Part shown: positions 17,211 to 28,905 of the stretch, one piece after another
Position numbering within the stretch: the first letter of the stretch is position 1
Layout: each line of letters starts with the position of its first letter
NCBI GenBank assembly: GCA_002937895.1
Contig: PTKV01000002.1
Span: 1 to 64,000, forward strand
Source: Alphaproteobacteria bacterium MarineAlpha5_Bin9
GTDB taxonomy: Bacteria; Pseudomonadota; Alphaproteobacteria; HIMB59; GCA-002718135
Length of the DNA: 64,000 nt
Direction: 5' to 3'
Translations under genes and position numbers: made by a program
The notes under the pieces: model-generated
Told to the model about the DNA's origin: nothing
Seen by the model: the letters and a program-made list of their open reading frames with translations, nothing else
Database searches by the model: none

Positions 17211-18878
17211 TTAACTATGTGCTGCTGATGTATAAACTTCAGCAGAAGTTATACTGTGTTTTTTCGAGGAAAATTTTTTTATAGTAAAATTTAAAAATAT
17301 TATTGGCCCTAAACCAGCTAGAATAATTATAATGGCCGCTAGAGAAGATTCTTCTAACATTTCATCAGACGCATATTGATAAACATATGTTGCCAATGTT
17401 TCAAAATTAAAAGGTCTTAACAATAATGTTATTGGCAACTCTTTAAGAATATCAACAAAAATTAAAATTCCACCTACTAAAACATTAGTGTAGACCAGTG
17501 GTAAAACTATTTTAAAAACTATATTTATAAATTTATGACCCATAGTTCTACTAACATTAACAATACTGGGATCTATTTTTTGTATTCCTGATCTCATGGC
17601 TCCATTACCAACAGCCAAAAAACGTATTGTGTAAGCAAAAAACAAAACTATCAGACTTCCAGTATAATAATTCAAGCGAAAATAAATTATGTCATTTAAC
17701 CATCCTACAAAAACAACAATTCCAACTGCTAATATTGTTCCAGGAAAAGCATAACCACAAGATGAGATAAAAATAAGAAAACGAGTAATAGGATTTGATT
17801 TATAATAATTTACAACAATCATAAAAATTGAAAGAAGCATAACTATTGATGATGCAGTAATTGCGACTAATATACTTGTAATAGAAGTAGAAAAAATTGC
17901 CTCAAAATTTATAACTGCAAAACCTTTTAGGACAAAATTTAACAAAACTCCTACTGGAATAATGAAACCAAACAAAAAAGGAGCAAAACATATAATAAAA
18001 CAAATTACTTTAAAAAATCCTTTTGCATGAATTGCTTCTATATTATTTTGACCACTGCTTTTTTCAAAAAATCTTTGGCGTTTTCTAGCTATCAATTCTA
18101 AGAATAAAAGAACTATTACAAAAATAAAAAGTACACAAGATATTTGTGACGCTCCAGATAAACTATTCATGCCTAACCACACATTAAAAACTCCAAGGGT
18201 TAGTGTCTCTAAAGCAAAATAATCAACTGTTCCAAAATCTGAAATAGTTTCCATTAATACTAATGCTAATCCAGCAACAATTCCAGGCCTAGCCAATGGA
18301 AGGGCTACATGAATAAAAACATTCTTTCCATGAACTAAACTTGCATGATAAAATGAAATAGGGGTAGAGATAAAAGATGCACGAGTCATTAAATAAATAT
18401 AAGGATACAAAACTGATGACATAACAAAAATAGCTCCCTCCATTGAACGAATATTAGGAAACCAATAATCTTGAGCATTTCTCCAACCAAATAAATCCCT
18501 TAAAGCTCCTTGAACTGGTCCTGCATATTCAAATATATCAGTGTATGTATAAGCTATGATATAAGCCGGAACTGCTGCAGGTAGCAACAGAGCCCATTCA
18601 AAAAAAAATTTAAAAGGGAATTTGTAACGTGTTACAATCCATGCTGTTGATATACCAAAAAAAAGACTAAGACACCCAACTCCAAATAAAAGAATTAAAG
18701 TATTTGATATATACCTAGGAAGTACTGTCGAGAATAAATGGGACCAAAGAGATGCATCTCCTGCAAATGCTGAATAAAAAATTGCCAATATAGGGGCGAT
18801 TATCAAACAAGATATAATTGTTACCGAAATTGACCAAATATTAAAATTATACAAAATACTAGAACTATAAACTACCAA
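17211..18878 (-). CDS. fbpB: Fe(III) ABC transporter permease
   Basis: A 555-residue double permease with about twelve helices and two EAA-type loops (HGKNVFIHVALPLARPGIVAG and MGHKFINIVFKIVLPLVYTNV), characteristic of FbpB/SfuB. The only suitable start is a TTG at 18878 that overlaps the end of fbpA by 7 bases, so translation is probably coupled to fbpA. The first helix begins at about residue 13, leaving no room for a later start. It carries iron delivered by FbpA across the inner membrane. Confidence 0.87.
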   Translation of the reverse strand: MVVYSSSILYNFNIWSISVTIISCLIIAPILAIFYSAFAGDASLWSHLFSTVLPRYISNTLILLFGVGCLSLFFGISTAWIVTRYKFPFKFFFEWALLLPAAVPAYIIAYTYTDIFEYAGPVQGALRDLFGWRNAQDYWFPNIRSMEGAIFVMSSVLYPYIYLMTRASFISTPISFYHASLVHGKNVFIHVALPLARPGIVAGLALVLMETISDFGTVDYFALETLTLGVFNVWLGMNSLSGASQISCVLFIFVIVLLFLELIARKRQRFFEKSSGQNNIEAIHAKGFFKVICFIICFAPFLFGFIIPVGVLLNFVLKGFAVINFEAIFSTSITSILVAITASSIVMLLSIFMIVVNYYKSNPITRFLIFISSCGYAFPGTILAVGIVVFVGWLNDIIYFRLNYYTGSLIVLFFAYTIRFLAVGNGAMRSGIQKIDPSIVNVSRTMGHKFINIVFKIVLPLVYTNVLVGGILIFVDILKELPITLLLRPFNFETLATYVYQYASDEMLEESSLAAIIIILAGLGPIIFLNFTIKKFSSKKHSITSAEVYTSAAHS

Positions 18879-19891
18879 CCAACTCTATCAATAATTTTTT
18901 GAGCCAAAGGAGCTAGTTCTGCTATTTTTATAATAGGTAATTTATCTTCTCTAAATTCTCCCCAACTGATTAATTCAGTTGATGGAGAAATATTAGGATT
19001 AACAGGATATTCAAAATTAATCTCTCCGTATAATTTTTGAGCTTTTGGACTAGTCAAAAACTCTAATAATGCTATTGCTGATTCTTTATTTTTTGAAAAT
19101 TTAGCAACTCCTCCTCCAGATATATTTATATGGGCACCTCTATCTCCATTGTCCTGATTTGGAAAAATTAATAAAAGATTTTTTATCCATTCTCTTTGTT
19201 TAGGATCTTCAGAAAATTTAAGTTTGCCAAAATAGTAATTGTTTATTATTGCTATATCACATTCACCTTCATAAATAGCTTTTACTTGTGCCCTATCATT
19301 TCCTTGAGGGCGTCTAGCTAAATTATCTACTAATCCTTGCGCCCATTTTTCTGCTTCTACTTCCCCATGAGCAGCAATTATTGAAGTCATAAGTGCGCGA
19401 TTATAAACATGACTACCTGGTCTGGAACAAATTCTTCCTTTCCATTCGGGATTGGCAAGATCTTCAATTCTTTTTATACTGTTAGCATTAACTCTATTCT
19501 TGTCTATAACTATAATTCTTGATCGTTTCGAAAAACTAAACCAAGTGTTATCGGGACTTCTAAGATGTTTTGGTATGTTTTTTTCAAGTTTTTTTGATTT
19601 AATAGAAGATAAAAGTTTTTGATCGTCGTAAATATAAAGTCTTGCAATATCTACTGTTAAAATAACATCAGCAGGACTATTTTCTCCTTCAGATTTTAAA
19701 CGTTGGGCCAATCCTTTTTTTGAATAAATAACATTAGTTTTTATGCCGGTTTCTTCAGTAAATAGTTCTAAAAAAGGATTTATTAAAAAAGGTTGTCTAT
19801 GAGAATAAATATTGATTTCATTTGCAAATAATTTTTCAATATGAATAAAAATAAAAATAATTGCTAATAACTTATAAAAAATAATTTTCAT
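18872..19891 (-). CDS. fbpA: Fe(III) ABC transporter substrate-binding protein
   Basis: A 339-residue periplasmic binding protein with a signal peptide of about 23 residues. NEINIYSHRQPFLINPFLELF starts the mature protein, and ADVILTVDIARLY and the double tyrosine in AIINNYYFGK (iron ligands in FbpA/FutA relatives) are visible. NPEWKGRICSRPGSHVYN and NISGGGVAK are further family landmarks. It overlaps fbpB by 7 bases and begins 4 bases inside the end of the upstream hydroxylase-like gene, so it is transcribed with that gene. Confidence 0.9.
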   Translation of the reverse strand: MKIIFYKLLAIIFIFIHIEKLFANEINIYSHRQPFLINPFLELFTEETGIKTNVIYSKKGLAQRLKSEGENSPADVILTVDIARLYIYDDQKLLSSIKSKKLEKNIPKHLRSPDNTWFSFSKRSRIIVIDKNRVNANSIKRIEDLANPEWKGRICSRPGSHVYNRALMTSIIAAHGEVEAEKWAQGLVDNLARRPQGNDRAQVKAIYEGECDIAIINNYYFGKLKFSEDPKQREWIKNLLLIFPNQDNGDRGAHINISGGGVAKFSKNKESAIALLEFLTSPKAQKLYGEINFEYPVNPNISPSTELISWGEFREDKLPIIKIAELAPLAQKIIDRVGW

Positions 19892-20889
19892 TTATAATCC
19901 TCCTTTAAGTTTCGCTTCTTTAAATGAAAAACAATCTTATTAAATTTATTAAAAGTATAACTCTTGATTTCAATTAGTGGATTTAAATATAAGTTTAATA
20001 AAGAATGAGTTTCTTGTTTTTGATTTTTCTCTAAACCTAATTTAAGTGTATCAAATTCTACAGAATGATGAAGTGATCCAAATAACCAATCCCAAATAGC
20101 TAAGGCTGCTCCAAAATTCTTATCATGATGTTCTCTAGCTATAGAATGATGTAACTGGTGTTGTCCTGGAGATATGAAGATATATTCAACCCAATTCCAG
20201 TATCTGATTCCAATATGAGAATGTCTTAAATTAGATCCTAAAATATTAAAAATAAAAACAAAAACATTAACCCCAAGAATAGTAAATAAATTAACTGAGT
20301 CGGCAAAAAGAAATACAAACAAGGAAATGCTTATTGCTTGAGTAACTGAACTTCTTAAAGAAAAAATTATGCCCTCTAAAGGATGAGTCCTAAAAACTGT
20401 CATAGGTGTTAAAACTGTTGCTGAGTGATGAACTTTATGAAGTGACCAAAGTATTGGTAATTTATGCATAAATCGATGTATTATATATTTACTAAAATCA
20501 TCAATTGTAAATTGAAAAATAGTAAATGCCAAAACAACATAAGTTTTAGATACACTTGTGAACATGCCTACACTTATCCAATCAATTGAATGGAAATAAA
20601 AATATAAAGCTGTTGCTATTGTAAGCTGAGTAATCAATAATGGTGAAATTATCATCATTATTAATTGATTTAACAAAAAAACTTTATAATCGGATTTTGC
20701 TGATTTAGAAAAGAAAATTTTATAGTCAAATATTTTCTTTAAGGTTTCATTAAATGAAAGTTTTTTTTTAACCATAAACCAAAGAAAGGCTATAAAAATA
20801 GAAATTAATATATAAAAAATATAAATCCTTTTTTTTGGATCTATAAATTGATTGGTTATCAAAGATATATAATCAGATAAAATATCCAT
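19888..20889 (-). CDS. Fatty acid hydroxylase/sterol desaturase family membrane protein
   Basis: A 333-residue membrane protein with four or more helices and the histidine clusters of the di-iron hydroxylase superfamily: HRFMHKL, HKVHHS, HPLEG and HQLHHS. These bind two irons and insert a hydroxyl into a lipid. The substrate could be a fatty acid, a hopanoid or a carotenoid-like lipid. It overlaps fbpA by 4 bases and lies upstream of it in the same operon, so an iron-dependent enzyme is transcribed together with iron uptake. Confidence 0.85.
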   Translation of the reverse strand: MDILSDYISLITNQFIDPKKRIYIFYILISIFIAFLWFMVKKKLSFNETLKKIFDYKIFFSKSAKSDYKVFLLNQLIMMIISPLLITQLTIATALYFYFHSIDWISVGMFTSVSKTYVVLAFTIFQFTIDDFSKYIIHRFMHKLPILWSLHKVHHSATVLTPMTVFRTHPLEGIIFSLRSSVTQAISISLFVFLFADSVNLFTILGVNVFVFIFNILGSNLRHSHIGIRYWNWVEYIFISPGQHQLHHSIAREHHDKNFGAALAIWDWLFGSLHHSVEFDTLKLGLEKNQKQETHSLLNLYLNPLIEIKSYTFNKFNKIVFHLKKRNLKEDYK

Positions 20890-20902
20890 AGTAGATAATA
20901 TT

Positions 20903-20931
20903 TAGTGTGGCTATTTATTAAAGCCACACTA
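20903..20931 (-). terminator. Strong hairpin between DUF4856 and the hydroxylase gene
   Basis: The 10-base arm TAGTGTGGCT and its exact complement AGCCACACTA enclose a 9-base AT loop. It lies 11 bases after the DUF4856 stop on the minus strand and ends 14 bases before the hydroxylase start. There is no long U-run, so it may be a weak terminator or an mRNA-stabilising stem that lowers expression of the downstream fbp genes relative to DUF4856. Confidence 0.6.
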
Positions 20932-20941
20932 TTATAACATA

Positions 20942-22318
20942 TTAATCGTTTTCTGCAGAGTCAGAACTTCCCATTGAGTCAGCTAGAGCTGACATTTCAG
21001 CAAGCTGGTCATTTGACTTCGCTGTTACTCCAAATTCATCAACCATTAATTTTTGAATTTTAAGCATATGAAGTTTAAATTCTCCCCAGTCTTGTGCTTG
21101 ATCTTTAATAAAGTTACCATCTGAATCAACCCCAACAACTTGAGAAGCATTCAGTAAAACAGGTCCAAAACCCATCATTCTATTCATCTTAACAGCTGTT
21201 TCACCAAGATTTTTTGGTCCACATTGAAGCGCTAAAGCAAAACCTTTAAGCTCACCCCAATGCTTAGCATATTTTCTAAATGCATCAGTTGTATCGCCAT
21301 TTGCTTCAAGAATTGTTTCGAGAGCAATGATATCTTTATAAGTTGATCCAGCATATTTAAAGACTGATTCAGCTATTACCTTTTCCCAATTTTCAGCAAT
21401 TATATCCCTTTGGACTAGAAGCTTAGTTCTTTGATCGAAGTTAAGATTTTTTCCTGCAGCATCTACAATTACTTGCCTTCCATCTATGAATGCTTGATTA
21501 ATAGTTGCAAGATAATTAGTTTTTCCACCTTTATCGTAACTAGAAGCATAATATGCATGTGCAAAAGTATATTCGGAATAAAGATCTACAACACCATCTC
21601 CATTGAAGTCAGCTGATGCCATATCTTTCTTTTTAGCTAAATTATAATTTTGTTCTGCACTTAAAGTCAAAGCATGAGCCGCAGATCCCCAATAGCCAAA
21701 AGCCTCATCCCAACTGTGTTCTTTTCCAGTATAATAAGCTCCGTCCTTATAGGGTTTGTTGTTTGGCTTTTGTCCAATTTCCATTTTCTTTCCAAGATAA
21801 TTATTTATTGCTTGATTATAAAAAACAGCGCCCATGGCAAATTTAGAAATTAATTGAGTATAATCAAAGCCAGTATTAGGATCAAAGCCGCCCTCTACTT
21901 CTCCTGCTTTAGTAATCATATGTTCTAATACTTCTGCACCTGTAAGATTGCCCCATCCAGCAATAGATCCTTTGAAAATTTTGCCAGAAAGATTACCACT
22001 TCCAATTTCTGAAACCATAGTTTGTTTAATTAAAAAATCATCTTTGGATTTAGGTGCAACAATTTCTAACCCATCTTCTCCGTTATAATAAGCCATCATT
22101 TTGCTTACATCACCAGTTTTAACAAGAGCCTTTAAACTGTCATGCAAAACATGTCTTGCCATTTGCCCTGTATATTTTACAGAATTTGTTTTATCACCAG
22201 AATAGCCTAATAAAGTTATTGGATAAGGTCCATAAACATCATGCCCATCTGCAAGAGTTACTTTACCATAACTAAATGCCAACATTGCCATCATGGTAAC
22301 ATATAATAGTTTTTTCAT
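20942..22318 (-). CDS. Secreted DUF4856 protein
   Basis: A 458-residue protein with a signal peptide of about 23 residues. It has the arrangement I associate with DUF4856: SVKYTGQMARHVLHDSLKAL near the start and YTGKEHSWDEAFGYWGSAAH at about residues 197-216. The stretch DFNGDGVVDLYSEY at about 237-250 looks like an EF-hand or dockerin-type calcium loop. The ribosome-binding site AAAGGA is good. The function is not known. An Irr-like box about 120 bases upstream and the Fbp genes downstream suggest an iron-related envelope role; this is inference. Imelysin-like iron proteins are a distant alternative but their GxHxxE motif is not evident. Confidence 0.75.
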   Translation of the reverse strand: MKKLLYVTMMAMLAFSYGKVTLADGHDVYGPYPITLLGYSGDKTNSVKYTGQMARHVLHDSLKALVKTGDVSKMMAYYNGEDGLEIVAPKSKDDFLIKQTMVSEIGSGNLSGKIFKGSIAGWGNLTGAEVLEHMITKAGEVEGGFDPNTGFDYTQLISKFAMGAVFYNQAINNYLGKKMEIGQKPNNKPYKDGAYYTGKEHSWDEAFGYWGSAAHALTLSAEQNYNLAKKKDMASADFNGDGVVDLYSEYTFAHAYYASSYDKGGKTNYLATINQAFIDGRQVIVDAAGKNLNFDQRTKLLVQRDIIAENWEKVIAESVFKYAGSTYKDIIALETILEANGDTTDAFRKYAKHWGELKGFALALQCGPKNLGETAVKMNRMMGFGPVLLNASQVVGVDSDGNFIKDQAQDWGEFKLHMLKIQKLMVDEFGVTAKSNDQLAEMSALADSMGSSDSAEND

Positions 22319-22462: not shown

Positions 22463-22879
22463 TTAAAACTTAAAAACTACTAATGTGATTACAATAATTA
22501 GAATAATTGTTGGAACTTCATTAACAAATCTATAAAATTTATCTGAGTGTAAATTCCTATTATCTGTAAAACCAGCAAGCCATCTTCCACAAACAAAATG
22601 AAATAATGTAAGTGCAAAAACCAATAATATTTTTAATATCAGCCAAACTTCAATACCTATATAGTAAGTCAAAAAAAGACCGGTAATCCAAGAAATATAC
22701 AAGGCCGGAGTACAAATATACCAGTAAAGTCTTCTTTCCATTACTTTAAATGTATTGGAAGTTTCATCTGCAATTTTTGAATTTGCATGATAAACAAATA
22801 GTCTTGGTAAATACAATAATCCTGCCATCCAAGAGATAACACTTACAATATGAATGACTTTTATAATATTAAATATCAT
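22463..22879 (-). CDS. hemJ: Protoporphyrinogen IX oxidase, HemJ type
   Basis: A 138-residue four-helix membrane protein of the HemJ family. The conserved N-terminal histidine in KVIHIVSVISWMAGLLYLPRLFVYH, the YICTPALYISWITG segment and the FNEVPTI-type ending (FVNEVPTIILI) identify it. It oxidises protoporphyrinogen IX to protoporphyrin IX. It is the last gene of the heme operon, 3 bases after hemF. Expression is probably with the whole operon. Confidence 0.9.
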   Translation of the reverse strand: MIFNIIKVIHIVSVISWMAGLLYLPRLFVYHANSKIADETSNTFKVMERRLYWYICTPALYISWITGLFLTYYIGIEVWLILKILLVFALTLFHFVCGRWLAGFTDNRNLHSDKFYRFVNEVPTIILIIVITLVVFKF

Positions 22880-22882
22880 ATT

Positions 22883-23689
22883 TTAATCCCAACTTGCATG
22901 AGGAGGCATCGACATTAAAATCGCATCAATATTTCCTCCTGTTTCTAAACCAAAACGTGTTCCTCTATCATGCAATAAATTAAATTCTGCATAACGACTT
23001 CTTTTTTTTAATTGAATTTCCTTTTCCTTGCTATTCCATTCCTTATCTTTGTATTTCTTTATTATATTGATTGCATAATTTTTAAAAAATAATCCAACAT
23101 CTTTAATAAAATTAAAATCTTTATCCCAATCATTATTATTTAGATTGTCAAAAAAAATACCTCCGATACCCCTTGGTTCATTTCGATGTGGTAAGAAAAA
23201 ATATTCATCACACCATTTTTTATATTTAGGATAATATTTATCATTATGTTGATCGCACATTTTTTTTAATTCAATGTGATAATCATTTTTATCAATAAAA
23301 GGCAAGCAAGGAGTTATGTCCATACCGCCTCCAAACCAAACTTTTTCTGTTTCTAAATAACGTGTATTAAAATGCATCGATGGTATATGTGGGGAACAAG
23401 GATGAAGCACTACGCTTATTCCTGTTGCTTTGTAAGAATCATCATTATCCGTGCCTGGCATTCGTTTAGAAAAATCTTTACTAAATCGACCAGCAACATT
23501 CGAGATATTCACTCCTCCTTTTTCTAAAACGGAACCTTTGATTTTACTCATCTTGCCTCCACCCTCTTGGCTATGTTCCCATTTTGTTATAACAAATTTT
23601 GATGTTTCAATTTTCTCAATATCACTGATTAAATTATTTCTTAATTCCTTAAACCATTCTTCAGCTTTGATAATATGTGAATTTGACAT
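22883..23689 (-). CDS. hemF: Oxygen-dependent coproporphyrinogen III oxidase
   Basis: Oxidatively decarboxylates coproporphyrinogen III. The chosen ATG at 23689 overlaps the hemH stop by one base; an ATG 12 bases upstream is also possible. Motifs include WEHSQEGGGKMSKI, HPCSPHIPSMHFNTRYLE, VWFGGGMDITPCLPF and RYAEFNLLHDRGTRFGLETGG. The protein, 268 residues, ends shortly after the SMPPHASWD segment, the short form common in alphaproteobacteria rather than the longer E. coli one. It needs oxygen, in agreement with an aerobic marine life. Confidence 0.93.
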   Translation of the reverse strand: MSNSHIIKAEEWFKELRNNLISDIEKIETSKFVITKWEHSQEGGGKMSKIKGSVLEKGGVNISNVAGRFSKDFSKRMPGTDNDDSYKATGISVVLHPCSPHIPSMHFNTRYLETEKVWFGGGMDITPCLPFIDKNDYHIELKKMCDQHNDKYYPKYKKWCDEYFFLPHRNEPRGIGGIFFDNLNNNDWDKDFNFIKDVGLFFKNYAINIIKKYKDKEWNSKEKEIQLKKRSRYAEFNLLHDRGTRFGLETGGNIDAILMSMPPHASWD

Positions 23690-24714
23690 TAAACTTTCCA
23701 CCCCTTCGTATGTTTACTTATCAAAAGGCTTATCATTTCGATGTGTTCGGGATTATCATTTAGGCAAGGAATATAATAATAAGACTCTCCTCCTGCTTTC
23801 ATAAAATATTCTTTATTTTCTTCTTGAAGTTCCTCTAGTGTCTCTAAGCAATCAGCACTAAATCCTGGAGATAGTATATGAATATTTTTTATTCCCTCTT
23901 TGGGTAATTTTTTTAGAGTTTCATCGGTATATGGTTGAAGCCATTCCTGTGTTCCAAAGCGACTTTGAAAAGTAGTAATAATATCTTCTTCTTTATAATT
24001 AAGATATTCACGAACCAAGCGTGAAGTTTTTAAACAAAAGCAGTGATAGGGATCGCCTTCAAGAAGATATTTTTTTGGTATTCCATGGTAACTAAAAATT
24101 ATTTTCTGCGGTTTTCCTTTGTTTTTTTCAGCTTTTTTAATTGAATCTCCAATTGCTTTTATAAAAAGATTTTCCTCAAAATATTGATTGATAAATCGTA
24201 ATTCTGGAATCCATCTCCATTTCTGCAAAATGGATGAAACAGCATCAAATGTACTACCTGTTGTGGCAGCACAATATTGCGGATAAAGTGGCAAAACCAA
24301 TAAGCGCCTTACTTGTTGTTTATGTAATTTATCTAAAGCGCTATGAATGGATGGATTACCATATCGCATTGCTAAAGAAAATACTGTATTTGGGAATTCT
24401 TTTTTTAATCTTTCTTCAACTAATCTTACTTGTTTTTTTGATATATGAAGTAGTGGAGATCCCTCATCAGTCCATATCTTTTTATAACTTGCTGCAGAGC
24501 GTCGTGGGCGTATTTGTAATATAACTAAATTTAAAATAATTTGCCAAATAAGTTTTGGGATCTCTATTACTCTTTGATCAGAAAGAAATTCTTTTAAATA
24601 AGGTTTTAAAGCTTTACTTGTTGGTGCATCAGGCGTTCCTAGATTTGTAATTAAAACACCAGTTTTTTCATGACTGCCATGTTGATAGTTTTTTTCACCA
24701 ACATATTTAACCAT
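23689..24714 (-). CDS. hemH: Ferrochelatase
   Basis: A 341-residue soluble ferrochelatase that inserts Fe2+ into protoporphyrin IX. It starts with GVLITNLGTPDAPTSKALKPYL, the typical N-terminal motif; the metal-binding histidine is in IIFSYHGIPKKYL and the glutamate in SADCLETLEELQEE. YPQYCAATTGSTFDAV and TFQSRFGTQEWLQPYTDE are further conserved stretches. It follows hemE by 5 bases and overlaps hemF by one base. Confidence 0.94.
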   Translation of the reverse strand: MVKYVGEKNYQHGSHEKTGVLITNLGTPDAPTSKALKPYLKEFLSDQRVIEIPKLIWQIILNLVILQIRPRRSAASYKKIWTDEGSPLLHISKKQVRLVEERLKKEFPNTVFSLAMRYGNPSIHSALDKLHKQQVRRLLVLPLYPQYCAATTGSTFDAVSSILQKWRWIPELRFINQYFEENLFIKAIGDSIKKAEKNKGKPQKIIFSYHGIPKKYLLEGDPYHCFCLKTSRLVREYLNYKEEDIITTFQSRFGTQEWLQPYTDETLKKLPKEGIKNIHILSPGFSADCLETLEELQEENKEYFMKAGGESYYYIPCLNDNPEHIEMISLLISKHTKGWKV

Positions 24715-24719
24715 GACTA

Positions 24720-25727
24720 TTATTTAAAATTTTCTCTTATTGTCTTAATAAATAAATGAACATTTTCCTCAGGAGTGTCCTTTTTAATACCGTGACCCAA
24801 TCCGCATATCCACCCAGATCTTTCATTTATATCTAATTTTAACAAATTATCACAATATCTAGATAATTCTTCTTTGAGATCATGTTTATTTAAAAGCATC
24901 TTTGTTTCATCAAAATTTCCTTGGATAAATCCTTTGCTTTTTGATTTTAAAAATTGCTTTAAATCATTTGCACTATCACAACCAATTCCAGCAAAATTTA
25001 GTTTTAATAGAGAATTACAATAATTATTTTCTAAACCTTTTGCATAATAACCAACATTATTTTTAAAATTTTCACTTATTTTTTTCAAAATATCTAAATA
25101 TATATTTTTAAATTCCATGGTATCAATATCTTTTAATCCACTATCAAAAATCATAACTAACTCAGCGCCTGAGTCTAATTGCAATTGAATATTTTTGATT
25201 AATAATGGAACCAAAGTATTATTTAGAAAGTCTATTTCAAAAGAATCTTTTTTTAATATAGCTTTATTTGCCTTGCCTATAGCGAATTTTAAAAGCGTAT
25301 AAGGGCCACCTACAAAGCCTATTAAACTTTTGTTATTTGTTAATTTATTTTTCGTAAATCTAATAGCTTCCTTTTGAAATTGAAGATGTTCAATTGCTCT
25401 GTCAATATTTTGAAATTGACTCAAATTTTCTTTAACTAATTGTTGGGAAAATATAGGGCCAGGGTCAAATTTTAATGACATACCCAATCCTTCTAAAACA
25501 AATAGAATATCACTAAAAAGAATAGCAATATCAAAATCAAATTCATTAATTGGACCACATGCAATTTCTGATGATAATTCTGGATTTTTGCAAAGTTCTT
25601 CAAATGAATATTTTTTCTTAAATTCTTTGTAATGACTATGATACCTTCCTGCTTGACGCATAAACCATATAGGTGGAGTAGATTGAGGTATATTGTTTAT
25701 TGAATTTATAAAAAGCTTATTTGACAC
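24720..25727 (-). CDS. hemE: Uroporphyrinogen decarboxylase
   Basis: A 335-residue enzyme that decarboxylates uroporphyrinogen III to coproporphyrinogen III. The signature IWFMRQAGRYHSHYKEFK near the start, the catalytic aspartate in ILFSDILFVLEGLGM, GFVGGPYTLLKFAIG and the C-terminal GHGIKKDTPEENVHLF identify it. It overlaps hemB by 11 bases and is followed by hemH 5 bases on. Some decarboxylases of the family act on other substrates, but the operon context settles it. Confidence 0.94.
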   Translation of the reverse strand: MSNKLFINSINNIPQSTPPIWFMRQAGRYHSHYKEFKKKYSFEELCKNPELSSEIACGPINEFDFDIAILFSDILFVLEGLGMSLKFDPGPIFSQQLVKENLSQFQNIDRAIEHLQFQKEAIRFTKNKLTNNKSLIGFVGGPYTLLKFAIGKANKAILKKDSFEIDFLNNTLVPLLIKNIQLQLDSGAELVMIFDSGLKDIDTMEFKNIYLDILKKISENFKNNVGYYAKGLENNYCNSLLKLNFAGIGCDSANDLKQFLKSKSKGFIQGNFDETKMLLNKHDLKEELSRYCDNLLKLDINERSGWICGLGHGIKKDTPEENVHLFIKTIRENFK

Positions 25728-26682
25728 TAAAGCCTAACTCCTTAGATTTTCTAGCTCCATAGGTAATAATAAATTGAGCTCCTGCTCTTTTCATTACATG
25801 CCAACTTTCAAATAATCCTTTATTTAATTCTAACAAATTGTTTTCAGATGCTAAATTAATACCGGCATACTCCCCACTTACTTGATATGCACCAACCATC
25901 AACCCTGTTAAATTATTAATAGGCTGTATCAAATCTAAAGAATATAAGCCTGGCTTAACCATTAACAAATCAGCTCCTTCTTCAGCACATCTTGTTGATG
26001 CCCTAAGGGCATCATTTTTATTTCTATAATCTAGTTGATAATGTTTACGATCTCCAAAAGAAGGAGTGGAATCTGCAGCATCTCTAAATGGTCCATAAAA
26101 ATTACTTGCAAATTTAGAGCTGTAACTCATGATAGGGATTAAATCATAATTATTTTCATCAAGAGCTAATCTTATTTTATTTGTTCTTCCATCCATCATG
26201 TCACTAGGAGCAATTCCATCTATGCCTGCATCTGCATATGTCACTGCAGTTTTAGATAATGAAGAAAGAGATTTTTTGATATCAATGTTTTGACTTTTAT
26301 CAAATACACAACAATGTCCATGAGTGGTCATTGAACAAAGACAAACATCAGCCCATAAAAAAATATCATCTTTAAAAAAATTTTTTACTTGGGATATTGC
26401 TTCTGATTGAAAATTTAAATTAAAATCCAATTCCTTTTTTTCTGATGGAATTAAAAAAAGAAGAAAGTTACGACAATCATTTTTTAAATCATTTTCAATT
26501 TGTTTAAGCGCATCCTGAATATTAAAAACAAAATTATCTCCCAGTCCAGGTATTGATTTTTTATCAGATACTTTTTCAGAAATAAAAATTGGTTGAATTA
26601 ATTGATCAGATAGAAAACTTGTTTCTGCACACATATTGCGCAAAATTACATTTTTTTTTAATCTTAATAATTTATCTGACAT
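25717..26682 (-). CDS. hemB: Delta-aminolevulinic acid dehydratase (porphobilinogen synthase)
   Basis: Condenses two 5-aminolevulinates to porphobilinogen. The Schiff-base lysines are in MSYSSKFASNFYGPFRDAA and LLMVKPGLYSLDLI. The region DVCLCSMTTHGHCCVFD carries several cysteines, so this is a zinc-dependent type. At 321 residues it has the normal length. It overlaps hemC by 11 bases upstream and hemE by 11 bases downstream, a sign of tight translational coupling through the operon. Confidence 0.94.
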   Translation of the reverse strand: MSDKLLRLKKNVILRNMCAETSFLSDQLIQPIFISEKVSDKKSIPGLGDNFVFNIQDALKQIENDLKNDCRNFLLFLIPSEKKELDFNLNFQSEAISQVKNFFKDDIFLWADVCLCSMTTHGHCCVFDKSQNIDIKKSLSSLSKTAVTYADAGIDGIAPSDMMDGRTNKIRLALDENNYDLIPIMSYSSKFASNFYGPFRDAADSTPSFGDRKHYQLDYRNKNDALRASTRCAEEGADLLMVKPGLYSLDLIQPINNLTGLMVGAYQVSGEYAGINLASENNLLELNKGLFESWHVMKRAGAQFIITYGARKSKELGFSVK

Positions 26683-28198
26683 TTATTAATTTTCTCCTCC
26701 AATGATCGTATGATAAGTGGACTGATAATTTAGCTGGGTCTTTTATCATTTTTTTCATTTCTTTGAAGGTATTACCTGGTCCACATGCATGAAATGCTTC
26801 TAAAACCTTGGGATCCTTGATAATTGCAAGTTTAAAGGCACTTGAGCTCATCCAATAAAAATATTTTTTATTAGCAAAATTAGGCAAATTTTCTTCTTCT
26901 TCCAATTCATATGTGTGGATGACATTTTTAATTATACTCTCAACCGATTTTGAATGTGTTAATTTAATCCATGGCAATTGACATAGAGAAGATATATTTG
27001 GGTTAAAATCTTCACCCATACTATCAGAACAACCATTAACCCAAATACCTCGTATAGATAAAGCTTTCCAAGTTTTTAATCCACTAGCCCATATTATATT
27101 TGAAGAAGACAAAGATGATTCTTTTGGTAAAGCAGATTTTCGGGAAATCCATATGCAGTAATTGTTAAGAGAGTTAATCTTATGAATAGAATCTTTAATC
27201 AAATTTCTTTTAAAAAACTTATAATTAGAAATAGTTTCTGGGAAAATTTCATTTTCTTTTACAATTAAATTTTCATTTTTTTTAGATTCTAAAATTGACC
27301 AATCATAAAATTTTTTTCCTTGTTCTGATTCTCCTTTTTCAGATTTTACTAAACCAAATAAAGTTGGGAATAAGCTAACTCCAATTTTTTGATGACATCC
27401 GCCTCCATATTTTTTTAACACTTCTCTTTCTTTTTTTACACATATAATAGATAATGGATCAGAAATATTTTTAACTATTGCTTCTGTAATTTTGTCATTT
27501 GATTTTATTTCAATAGCAAGAGCTCCTTGACCTGGGGCTGAAGGGTTGATTGATAATGGAACTATCATCCATAAACACTGGTCAATATAACTTTTTATTT
27601 CTTTTGATAATTCCTGGAATTCTTTAAATGGATTTTTAAGTAGGCGATCAATTGCTGCCTTAGCAACAATCAATGCATCATTGTCACCGTTCAATAATTT
27701 TTTTAATCTAGTGGGTATATTGCCACGGACGTTATTAAAAACTATTTCATTACAGTTATAAGGAAAAAAATTTTGAATAAAATCTTTTAAATTATAAATT
27801 CTTCTTGGAGAAGAAGAGAGGATTTTTATTTTTTTACTTGTTTCTATTTTCTTAAGATTTTTTTTATTTACTAATAAAATATCTCTTTCATCAGCCCTCC
27901 TTATTGAACCAGCAATAGTTGTGCTTGGTTCAATGTCTATAGGTAGATCTTTCCATGAATGAACTATTATATCACACTTATTTTTAATTAAACTTTGCCT
28001 TAGATCATCAGTAAAAACACCTGTTGTTTTCATTTCAGATAAAGGGGACGATTTATCAATATCCCCTTCAGTTGTTTTAGTTAAATATATAATTTTAATA
28101 TCTGGGAATTTTTTATTTATTTCAAGGCCTACTAATTGGGCTTGAATTTGAGCCAAATCACTTTTTCTTGAAAGAATTCTTATTTGTTGTTTTGTCAT
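26672..28198 (-). CDS. hemC: Hydroxymethylbilane synthase fused to a HemD-like domain
   Basis: At 508 residues this is about 200 longer than a normal HemC. The first 340 residues show HMBS motifs: DDLRQSLI, HSWKDLPI (80-87; usually HSLKD or HSMKD), SSSPRRIY with substrate arginines, VRGNIPTRLKKL, and GGGCHQKIG with the dipyrromethane cysteine C268. The last 160 residues contain YWMSSSAFKLA (about 449-458) and HACGPGNTFKEMKK (about 470-483), which resemble the TSSSAV and VGPxT segments of uroporphyrinogen III synthase. Because no separate hemD is found here, the tail probably supplies that step. It opens the heme operon. Confidence 0.82.
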   Translation of the reverse strand: MTKQQIRILSRKSDLAQIQAQLVGLEINKKFPDIKIIYLTKTTEGDIDKSSPLSEMKTTGVFTDDLRQSLIKNKCDIIVHSWKDLPIDIEPSTTIAGSIRRADERDILLVNKKNLKKIETSKKIKILSSSPRRIYNLKDFIQNFFPYNCNEIVFNNVRGNIPTRLKKLLNGDNDALIVAKAAIDRLLKNPFKEFQELSKEIKSYIDQCLWMIVPLSINPSAPGQGALAIEIKSNDKITEAIVKNISDPLSIICVKKEREVLKKYGGGCHQKIGVSLFPTLFGLVKSEKGESEQGKKFYDWSILESKKNENLIVKENEIFPETISNYKFFKRNLIKDSIHKINSLNNYCIWISRKSALPKESSLSSSNIIWASGLKTWKALSIRGIWVNGCSDSMGEDFNPNISSLCQLPWIKLTHSKSVESIIKNVIHTYELEEEENLPNFANKKYFYWMSSSAFKLAIIKDPKVLEAFHACGPGNTFKEMKKMIKDPAKLSVHLSYDHWRRKLINVR

Positions 28199-28329: not shown

Positions 28330-28905
28330 ATGAAATACGTTCAAAAAATATCAGATCTAAAAATTGAAATAGATCAATTAAAACAAAGTTACCTTGAAAT
28401 AATTCAAAATATAAAAACATGGAAAAAAGACGAACAAAATCTTCATGATTTTAATGCAATATGTATCAACCAAATGCCAAATGATCCTAGCTCGATAAGT
28501 GGTGGAAATGTTAGAGGTCTTTATTGGACATACCCAAGCGAAAAGTGGGAGGAAGAAGAAAGATCTAATAAAATTGATGAAAGTAGGTATACAGAGATTT
28601 GTGAAATTTTTAAAAAAACATATGTTGAAGAAGTTTACAATCAAATTATTAAAAAATGGTCAATTGGAAGATTAAGATTTTTAATGAAGCCACCTAGATC
28701 TTGTTTAAGTTGGCACAGAGATCCTGAGAGAAGATTGCATATTCCTATTATTACAAATCCTGGTTGCAGAATGGTTATTGAAGATGAATGCTTCCATATG
28801 CCTGCAGATGGCTCCATTTACATAACTGATAATAGAAAATATCACAATTTTTTCAATGGTGGAGAAATTGAAAGAATTCATCTAGTTGGAACTTTAATAG
28901 AATAA
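28330..28905 (+). CDS. Aspartyl/asparaginyl beta-hydroxylase-like (cupin) oxygenase
   Basis: A 191-residue protein with a predicted coiled N-terminus and a C-terminal double-stranded beta-helix. CLSWHRDPERRLHIPIITNPGC gives the HxD metal pair, and KYHNFFNGGEIERIHLVG gives the distal histidine and a basic residue for 2-oxoglutarate, so it fits an Asp/Asn hydroxylase or Phytanoyl-CoA-like dioxygenase. The substrate is unknown. It is divergent from the heme operon with a 131-base gap, a probable iron link through its Fe(II) need only; no functional link is shown. Confidence 0.68.
   Translation: MKYVQKISDLKIEIDQLKQSYLEIIQNIKTWKKDEQNLHDFNAICINQMPNDPSSISGGNVRGLYWTYPSEKWEEEERSNKIDESRYTEICEIFKKTYVEEVYNQIIKKWSIGRLRFLMKPPRSCLSWHRDPERRLHIPIITNPGCRMVIEDECFHMPADGSIYITDNRKYHNFFNGGEIERIHLVGTLIE

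What the first reader, a model, noticed from the sequence alone, without database searches (positions are those of the whole stretch)
26672..28198. HemC fused to a divergent HemD-like domain
The HMBS part has HSWKDLPI in place of HSLKD/HSMKD, and a 160-residue tail resembles uroporphyrinogen III synthase. No hemD is found in an otherwise complete C-B-E-H-F-J cluster. The form differs from the usual alphaproteobacterial separate genes, so transfer from another phylum is possible.
Basis: partly seen in the sequence, partly recalled or inferred. Interest (0 to 1): 0.6.

Follow-up and report, generated by a model that had tools for sequence, protein, structure and literature searches.

The report
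Two-in-one heme enzyme, Leptospira type
This gene of a small ocean alphaproteobacterium encodes one protein carrying two consecutive heme-making enzymes (HemC and a very compact HemD), the same two-in-one enzyme already known from the spirochete Leptospira, and it appears to have travelled between bacterial groups together with its neighbour hemB.

Summary
One minus-strand ORF (26672-28198, 508 aa) has an N-terminal hydroxymethylbilane synthase (HMBS) with the cofactor cysteine and catalytic residues kept. Its ~163-residue tail matches no Pfam or NCBIfam model. The predicted tail fold finds only uroporphyrinogen III synthases (UroS) as its first eight matches in the PDB. Own genome: no separate hemD. 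The full-length protein is homologous to the Leptospira bifunctional HemC/HemD (38% over 97%), whose dual activity is reported in the literature. So this is a new member of a known kind. It is found across the AEGEAN-169/HIMB59 order, in the PS1 clade and in a few other alphaproteobacteria (13 of 385 sampled). HMBS and cluster-HemB trees both put all fusion bearers, Leptospira included, on one side (100/99 and 100/100). HemB in the cluster is Zn-type; relatives whose cluster lacks hemB keep a classical Mg-type HemB elsewhere. Transfer is therefore supported; donor and direction are not resolved. HSWKD is not diagnostic: that position is W, L, F, Y or M in the family. UroS activity here is inferred, not measured. 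In passing: this lineage shows neither known ALA-forming enzyme, though the later heme genes are intact.

The parts
26672..28198 (-). hemCD: fused hydroxymethylbilane synthase / uroporphyrinogen III synthase, 508 aa
27179..28198 (-). HMBS part, residues 1-340 (R11, S13, K83, D84, R132, R133, R158, R164 and cofactor Cys268 kept by alignment with human HMBS)
   Evidence: PF01379 E 2.8e-47; alignment to solved HMBS; fold match E 4e-23 to human HMBS
26675..27166 (-). compact UroS-like tail, residues 345-508
   Evidence: model pLDDT 85; first eight PDB fold matches all UroS, best E 6e-3, prob 0.99
25717..26682 (-). hemB, Zn-type (DVCLCSMTTHGHCC), overlaps hemCD by 11 bases; same clade as Leptospira HemB
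24720..25727 (-). hemE, uroporphyrinogen decarboxylase (GTG start), next step after UroS
   Evidence: PF01208 E 2e-70
23689..24714 (-). hemH, ferrochelatase
   Evidence: PF00762 E 1.9e-115
22883..23701 (-). hemF, oxygen-dependent coproporphyrinogen oxidase
   Evidence: PF01218 E 1e-92; NF003727 over cut-off
22463..22879 (-). hemJ, protoporphyrinogen oxidase
   Evidence: PF03653 E 6.9e-47

Best explanation
The gene encodes a bifunctional enzyme of the Leptospira HemCD type. The N-terminal part condenses four porphobilinogens on its dipyrromethane cofactor into hydroxymethylbilane. The C-terminal ~163-residue domain, a compact and sequence-divergent UroS fold, closes the ring with inversion of ring D to give uroporphyrinogen III, which the neighbouring hemE, hemF, hemJ and hemH products turn into heme. 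Physical linkage probably lets the unstable bilane pass directly between the sites. Shown: fused ORF, HMBS identity, UroS-like predicted fold, no other hemD detected, homology to the Leptospira enzyme, shared history with hemB. Inferred: UroS activity of this protein, bilane hand-over, and lateral transfer as the cause of the patchy distribution.
For: Full-length homology to the Leptospira interrogans protein annotated as bifunctional porphobilinogen deaminase/uroporphyrinogen synthase: 38% over 97%; dual activity of that protein is reported (Guegan 2003, as cited in PMC8698207). Tail fold: first eight of 350,542 PDB chains are all UroS. Tail and HMBS equally constrained. No HEM4 in this genome or, above cut-off, in 60 relatives or 7 other fusion genomes, whereas all 9 fusion-free alphaproteobacteria searched alongside have one. 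HemE/F/J/H in the same cluster need uroporphyrinogen III. hemCD-hemB-hemE order recurs in distant lineages. One-side support 100/99 for HMBS and 100/100 for HemB; keeping all alphaproteobacterial HemB together is rejected, p-AU 9e-10.
Against: No Foldseek match of the tail passes E 0.001; TM-scores by query are 0.4-0.65. Profile comparison with classical HemD finds nothing. The tail is about 90 residues shorter than a normal UroS. No activity has been measured outside Leptospira as far as I could find, and I could not read that primary paper. The lineage may lack an ALA source, so the pathway may not run from its first step.
Confidence: 0.91

Rival explanations
1. The tail is a UroS-derived domain that no longer catalyses but helps fold or regulate HMBS; UroS is supplied by an unrecognised separate protein.
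For: No sequence match to HEM4; tail much shorter than usual UroS; weak Foldseek E-values.
Against: Tail is as conserved as the enzyme part, with a Tyr (430), WMS and CGPGNT kept in nearly all members; no other UroS candidate; the Leptospira homologue is reported active.
Confidence: 0.06
2. On the history only (not exclusive with the best explanation of function): the fusion is an old vertical trait of Alphaproteobacteria lost in most lineages, with Leptospira the recipient, rather than something acquired by this lineage.
For: Several alphaproteobacterial families carry it; Leptospira branches inside the alphaproteobacterial rows in both trees.
Against: Only 13 of 385 alphaproteobacteria and 2 of 399 evenly drawn Pseudomonadota have it; classical alphaproteobacterial HMBS and HemB form another clade; relatives with unlinked hemB keep the classical alphaproteobacterial type.
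Confidence: 0.2
3. An ordinary HemC fused to a classical HemD by simple gene joining within this lineage.
For: A real case of that kind exists in another alphaproteobacterium (L138).
Against: The tail does not match HEM4, and the HMBS part does not group with alphaproteobacterial HemC.
Confidence: 0.02

Closest known systems
Leptospira HemCD (bifunctional porphobilinogen deaminase/uroporphyrinogen synthase, WP_000086813)
   Same: Full-length collinear homology, same two-part layout, same short tail, hemB directly downstream, HSWKD motif
   Different: 38% identity; the Leptospira cluster also has hemL, a two-component system and hemN instead of hemF/hemJ/hemH
Classical uroporphyrinogen III synthase HemD (Pfam HEM4, PF02602)
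   Same: Predicted fold: first eight PDB matches of the tail are UroS
   Different: No detectable sequence or profile similarity; about 163 instead of about 250 residues; fused to HMBS
Classical HMBS (HemC, PF01379)
   Same: Catalytic residues and cofactor Cys kept, fold match to human and E. coli enzymes
   Different: Separate, strongly supported branch; extra residues before the PGQGA motif; C-terminal fusion
HMBS-HEM4 fusion in another small alphaproteobacterium (L138)
   Same: Also HemC fused to HemD
   Different: Its HemD part is classical HEM4 (E 3e-29) and its HMBS falls with the non-fusion alphaproteobacterial sequences, on a long branch: an independent fusion

Membership tests
Leptospira-type HemCD | HMBS and tail homologous along the whole length | tested here: met
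   38% over 97%, alignment
Leptospira-type HemCD | No separate hemD in the genome | tested here: met
   (for the window's genome and relatives; genome 93% complete)
Leptospira-type HemCD | Produces uroporphyrinogen III from porphobilinogen | not testable with these tools
   needs enzyme assay or complementation
HMBS (TIGR00212 / PF01379) | Score over curated cut-off, catalytic Asp84, Arg pairs, cofactor Cys | tested here: met
Pfam HEM4 (PF02602) | Tail scores over the curated cut-off | tested here: not met
   no match in the window tail, the Leptospira tail or four other tails
UroS fold | Predicted structure resembles solved UroS above other folds | tested here: met
   ranks 1-8 all UroS, prob up to 0.99, TMq 0.40-0.63 (up to 0.65 at rank 13); E-values modest
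UroS fold | Two complete alpha/beta domains | tested here: inconclusive
   the 14-element model has fewer strands and helices than a full UroS; residue-level superposition was not available

The most novel reading that the evidence does not exclude
The tail is among the smallest UroS enzymes, a class that profile libraries do not recognise. It has spread between Spirochaetota and several alphaproteobacterial lineages as a hemCD-hemB-hemE cassette that displaced the native genes, including a swap of Mg-type for Zn-type HemB. Automated surveys that look for hemD would wrongly score these abundant ocean bacteria as lacking the step.
Probability: 0.45. Interest if true: 0.5.

Novelty: new member of a known kind. 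Interest (0 to 1): 0.36.

Why it matters
AEGEAN-169/HIMB59 bacteria are widespread ocean bacterioplankton and some have been called heme auxotrophs (PMC10308909, citing Kim 2021, which I could not read). A UroS that standard models miss could make pathway surveys report a missing hemD where there is none. The compact tail is also a natural test of which parts of UroS are needed, since no essential active-site residue is known for this enzyme (PMC7242693). The cassette looks like a clean case of replacement of an essential pathway segment between phyla.

Tried and rejected
HSWKD as a diagnostic: rejected, position 82 is W, L, F, Y or M in homologues. Sequence routes to HemD (Pfam, NCBIfam, PDB hmmsearch, hhalign with 9 alphaproteobacterial HemD): all empty. 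Weak PF02602 hits in relatives: 30- to 75-residue matches at 10-14 bits, below the 27.5-bit cut-off, taken as noise. G082 hit to the tail profile (E 7.5e-4): by eye a nucleotidyltransferase-like protein (NadD-like motifs), not a HemCD tail, and rejected. AT-rich composition as the cause of the tree grouping: the two fusion rows L150 and L151 still group with Leptospira when the other fusion rows are removed (quick tree with a long Leptospira branch). Of 171 tail-encoding loci found in genome contigs only the best 80 were shown.

Full report
What is there. The ORF 26672-28198 lies on the minus strand (ATG at 28198) and encodes 508 aa. Residues 1 to about 340 are a hydroxymethylbilane synthase: PF01379 E 2.8e-47, TIGR00212 190 bits against a cut-off of 164. 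Aligned with the human enzyme, the window keeps R11, S13, K83, D84, R132, R133, R158, R164 and cofactor Cys268. The tail, 345-508, has no Pfam or NCBIfam match.

The tail. AlphaFold2 with 17 sequences gave pLDDT 85 for the tail alone; with 18 sequences the whole protein gave pLDDT 89, pTM 0.89. Foldseek with the tail against 350,542 PDB chains put UroS structures from Shewanella, Pseudomonas, Thermus and human at ranks 1-8 (best E 6e-3, probability 0.99; TM by query 0.40-0.63 in ranks 1-8, and up to 0.65 at rank 13). No match passed E 0.001, so the fold call rests on the unanimity of the ranking. Sequence methods see nothing: PDB hmmsearch and hhalign against nine classical alphaproteobacterial HemD. 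Low sequence similarity among UroS enzymes is usual (PMC7242693). A tail Tyr (430 in the full protein) is invariant across 11 diverse members. In the order of strands it sits where classical HemD has its conserved Tyr, before the second F/W-x-S strand. I propose it as the counterpart of the Tyr implicated by mutagenesis in Anacystis UroS; this is an inference.

No other hemD. PF02602 finds nothing in the own genome at E <= 10 and nothing above cut-off in 60 relatives, including one genome in a single contig at 99% completeness. Seven other fusion-bearing alphaproteobacteria also lack it, while all nine fusion-free alphaproteobacteria in that comparison have it.

Known relative. A tblastn over plasmid records found the Leptospira interrogans protein annotated as bifunctional porphobilinogen deaminase/uroporphyrinogen synthase: 38% over 97% of the query, with hemB next to it. 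Its dual activity was reported by Guegan et al. 2003, which I could read only as cited in PMC8698207; a 2024 Leptospira paper also states it (PMC11426443). The Leptospira tail does not score in Pfam HEM4 either.

Distribution. Full-length or partial matches are in 54 of 60 relatives. Named loci are AEGEAN-169-type single cells, MarineAlpha5 and the PS1/OCS116 clade. AEGEAN-169 equals HIMB59 (PMC10308909); assigning the window to this group is an inference from its nearest named loci and from a same-order complete genome of 1.41 Mb. In the class, 13 of 385 genomes match (one of them, G082, spurious), and in an even draw over the phylum 2 of 399.

Cassette and transfer. hemCD-(hemB)-hemE recurs in all lineages looked at. 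hemH-hemF-hemJ follow in the HIMB59 order and f99; hemF-hemJ follow in the PS1/f50 loci (no hemH was detected there); hemN follows in f47. IQ-TREE trees: all HMBS parts of fusion bearers, Leptospira included, are one side of a branch (100/99). The cluster HemB proteins likewise (100/100). Holding all alphaproteobacterial HemB together is rejected (p-AU 9e-10). Cluster HemB have the cysteine metal site (DxCxCxxT..GHC), classical alphaproteobacterial HemB the aspartate one (DVALDPYT.HGHD); calling these Zn-type and Mg-type rests on established knowledge of porphobilinogen synthases, not on a test here. Five genomes whose cluster lacks hemB (four of this family and one of f50) carry a classical HemB elsewhere. 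This is what displacement by an incoming cassette, with later loss of one or other hemB, would leave. Direction is open: Leptospira lies inside the alphaproteobacterial rows, the trees are rooted at midpoint, several rows are AT-rich, and other phyla are thinly sampled.

The upstream end. In HIMB59, genus g6 and the PS1/f50 loci, a 5-aminolevulinate synthase gene stands divergently just upstream of hemCD. In the window and its nearest relatives an aspartyl/asparaginyl beta-hydroxylase-like gene stands there instead. G000, G002 and G004 (93, 93 and 90% complete) have no ALA synthase at E <= 1e-30 and no glutamyl-tRNA reductase beyond Rossmann-like fragments. The lineage may depend on ALA from outside; this was not followed to the end.

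Verdict. A real, conserved two-in-one enzyme of the Leptospira type with, most likely, an ordinary function. The novelty lies in the host group, the compact tail that profile libraries miss, and the shared history with hemB.

Noticed in passing
window 28330-28905 (+) and whole genome G000: The spot upstream of hemCD that holds 5-aminolevulinate synthase in HIMB59, genus g6 and PS1/f50 loci holds an aspartyl/asparaginyl beta-hydroxylase-like gene here; G000, G002 and G004 show no ALA synthase (E <= 1e-30) and no glutamyl-tRNA reductase, so the heme pathway seems to start without a known ALA source.
   Followed up: partly
L234-L238 versus window 25717-26682: Genomes whose hemCD cluster lacks hemB carry an unlinked classical Mg-type HemB, the others a Zn-type HemB in the cluster.
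   Followed up: yes
L138 (genome G082): Independent fusion of HMBS with a classical HEM4 domain, 555 aa, in another small alphaproteobacterium.
   Followed up: partly
L115 (contig CAJWEM010000021.1): Record titled Gammaproteobacteria holds a HemCD that branches next to a PS1-clade one; probably a mislabelled or misbinned contig.
   Followed up: no
genomes G001, G003, G008, G010, G018, G019: Members of the same family with neither HemCD nor HemF matches; either incomplete or true loss of heme synthesis.
   Followed up: no
window 17211-22318 (-): Next to the heme genes: an iron-type ABC transporter (permease and binding protein, named by eye), a sterol-desaturase-like protein (by eye), and a protein with a DUF4856 match that looks imelysin-like, suggesting a shared iron/heme locus.
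   Followed up: no
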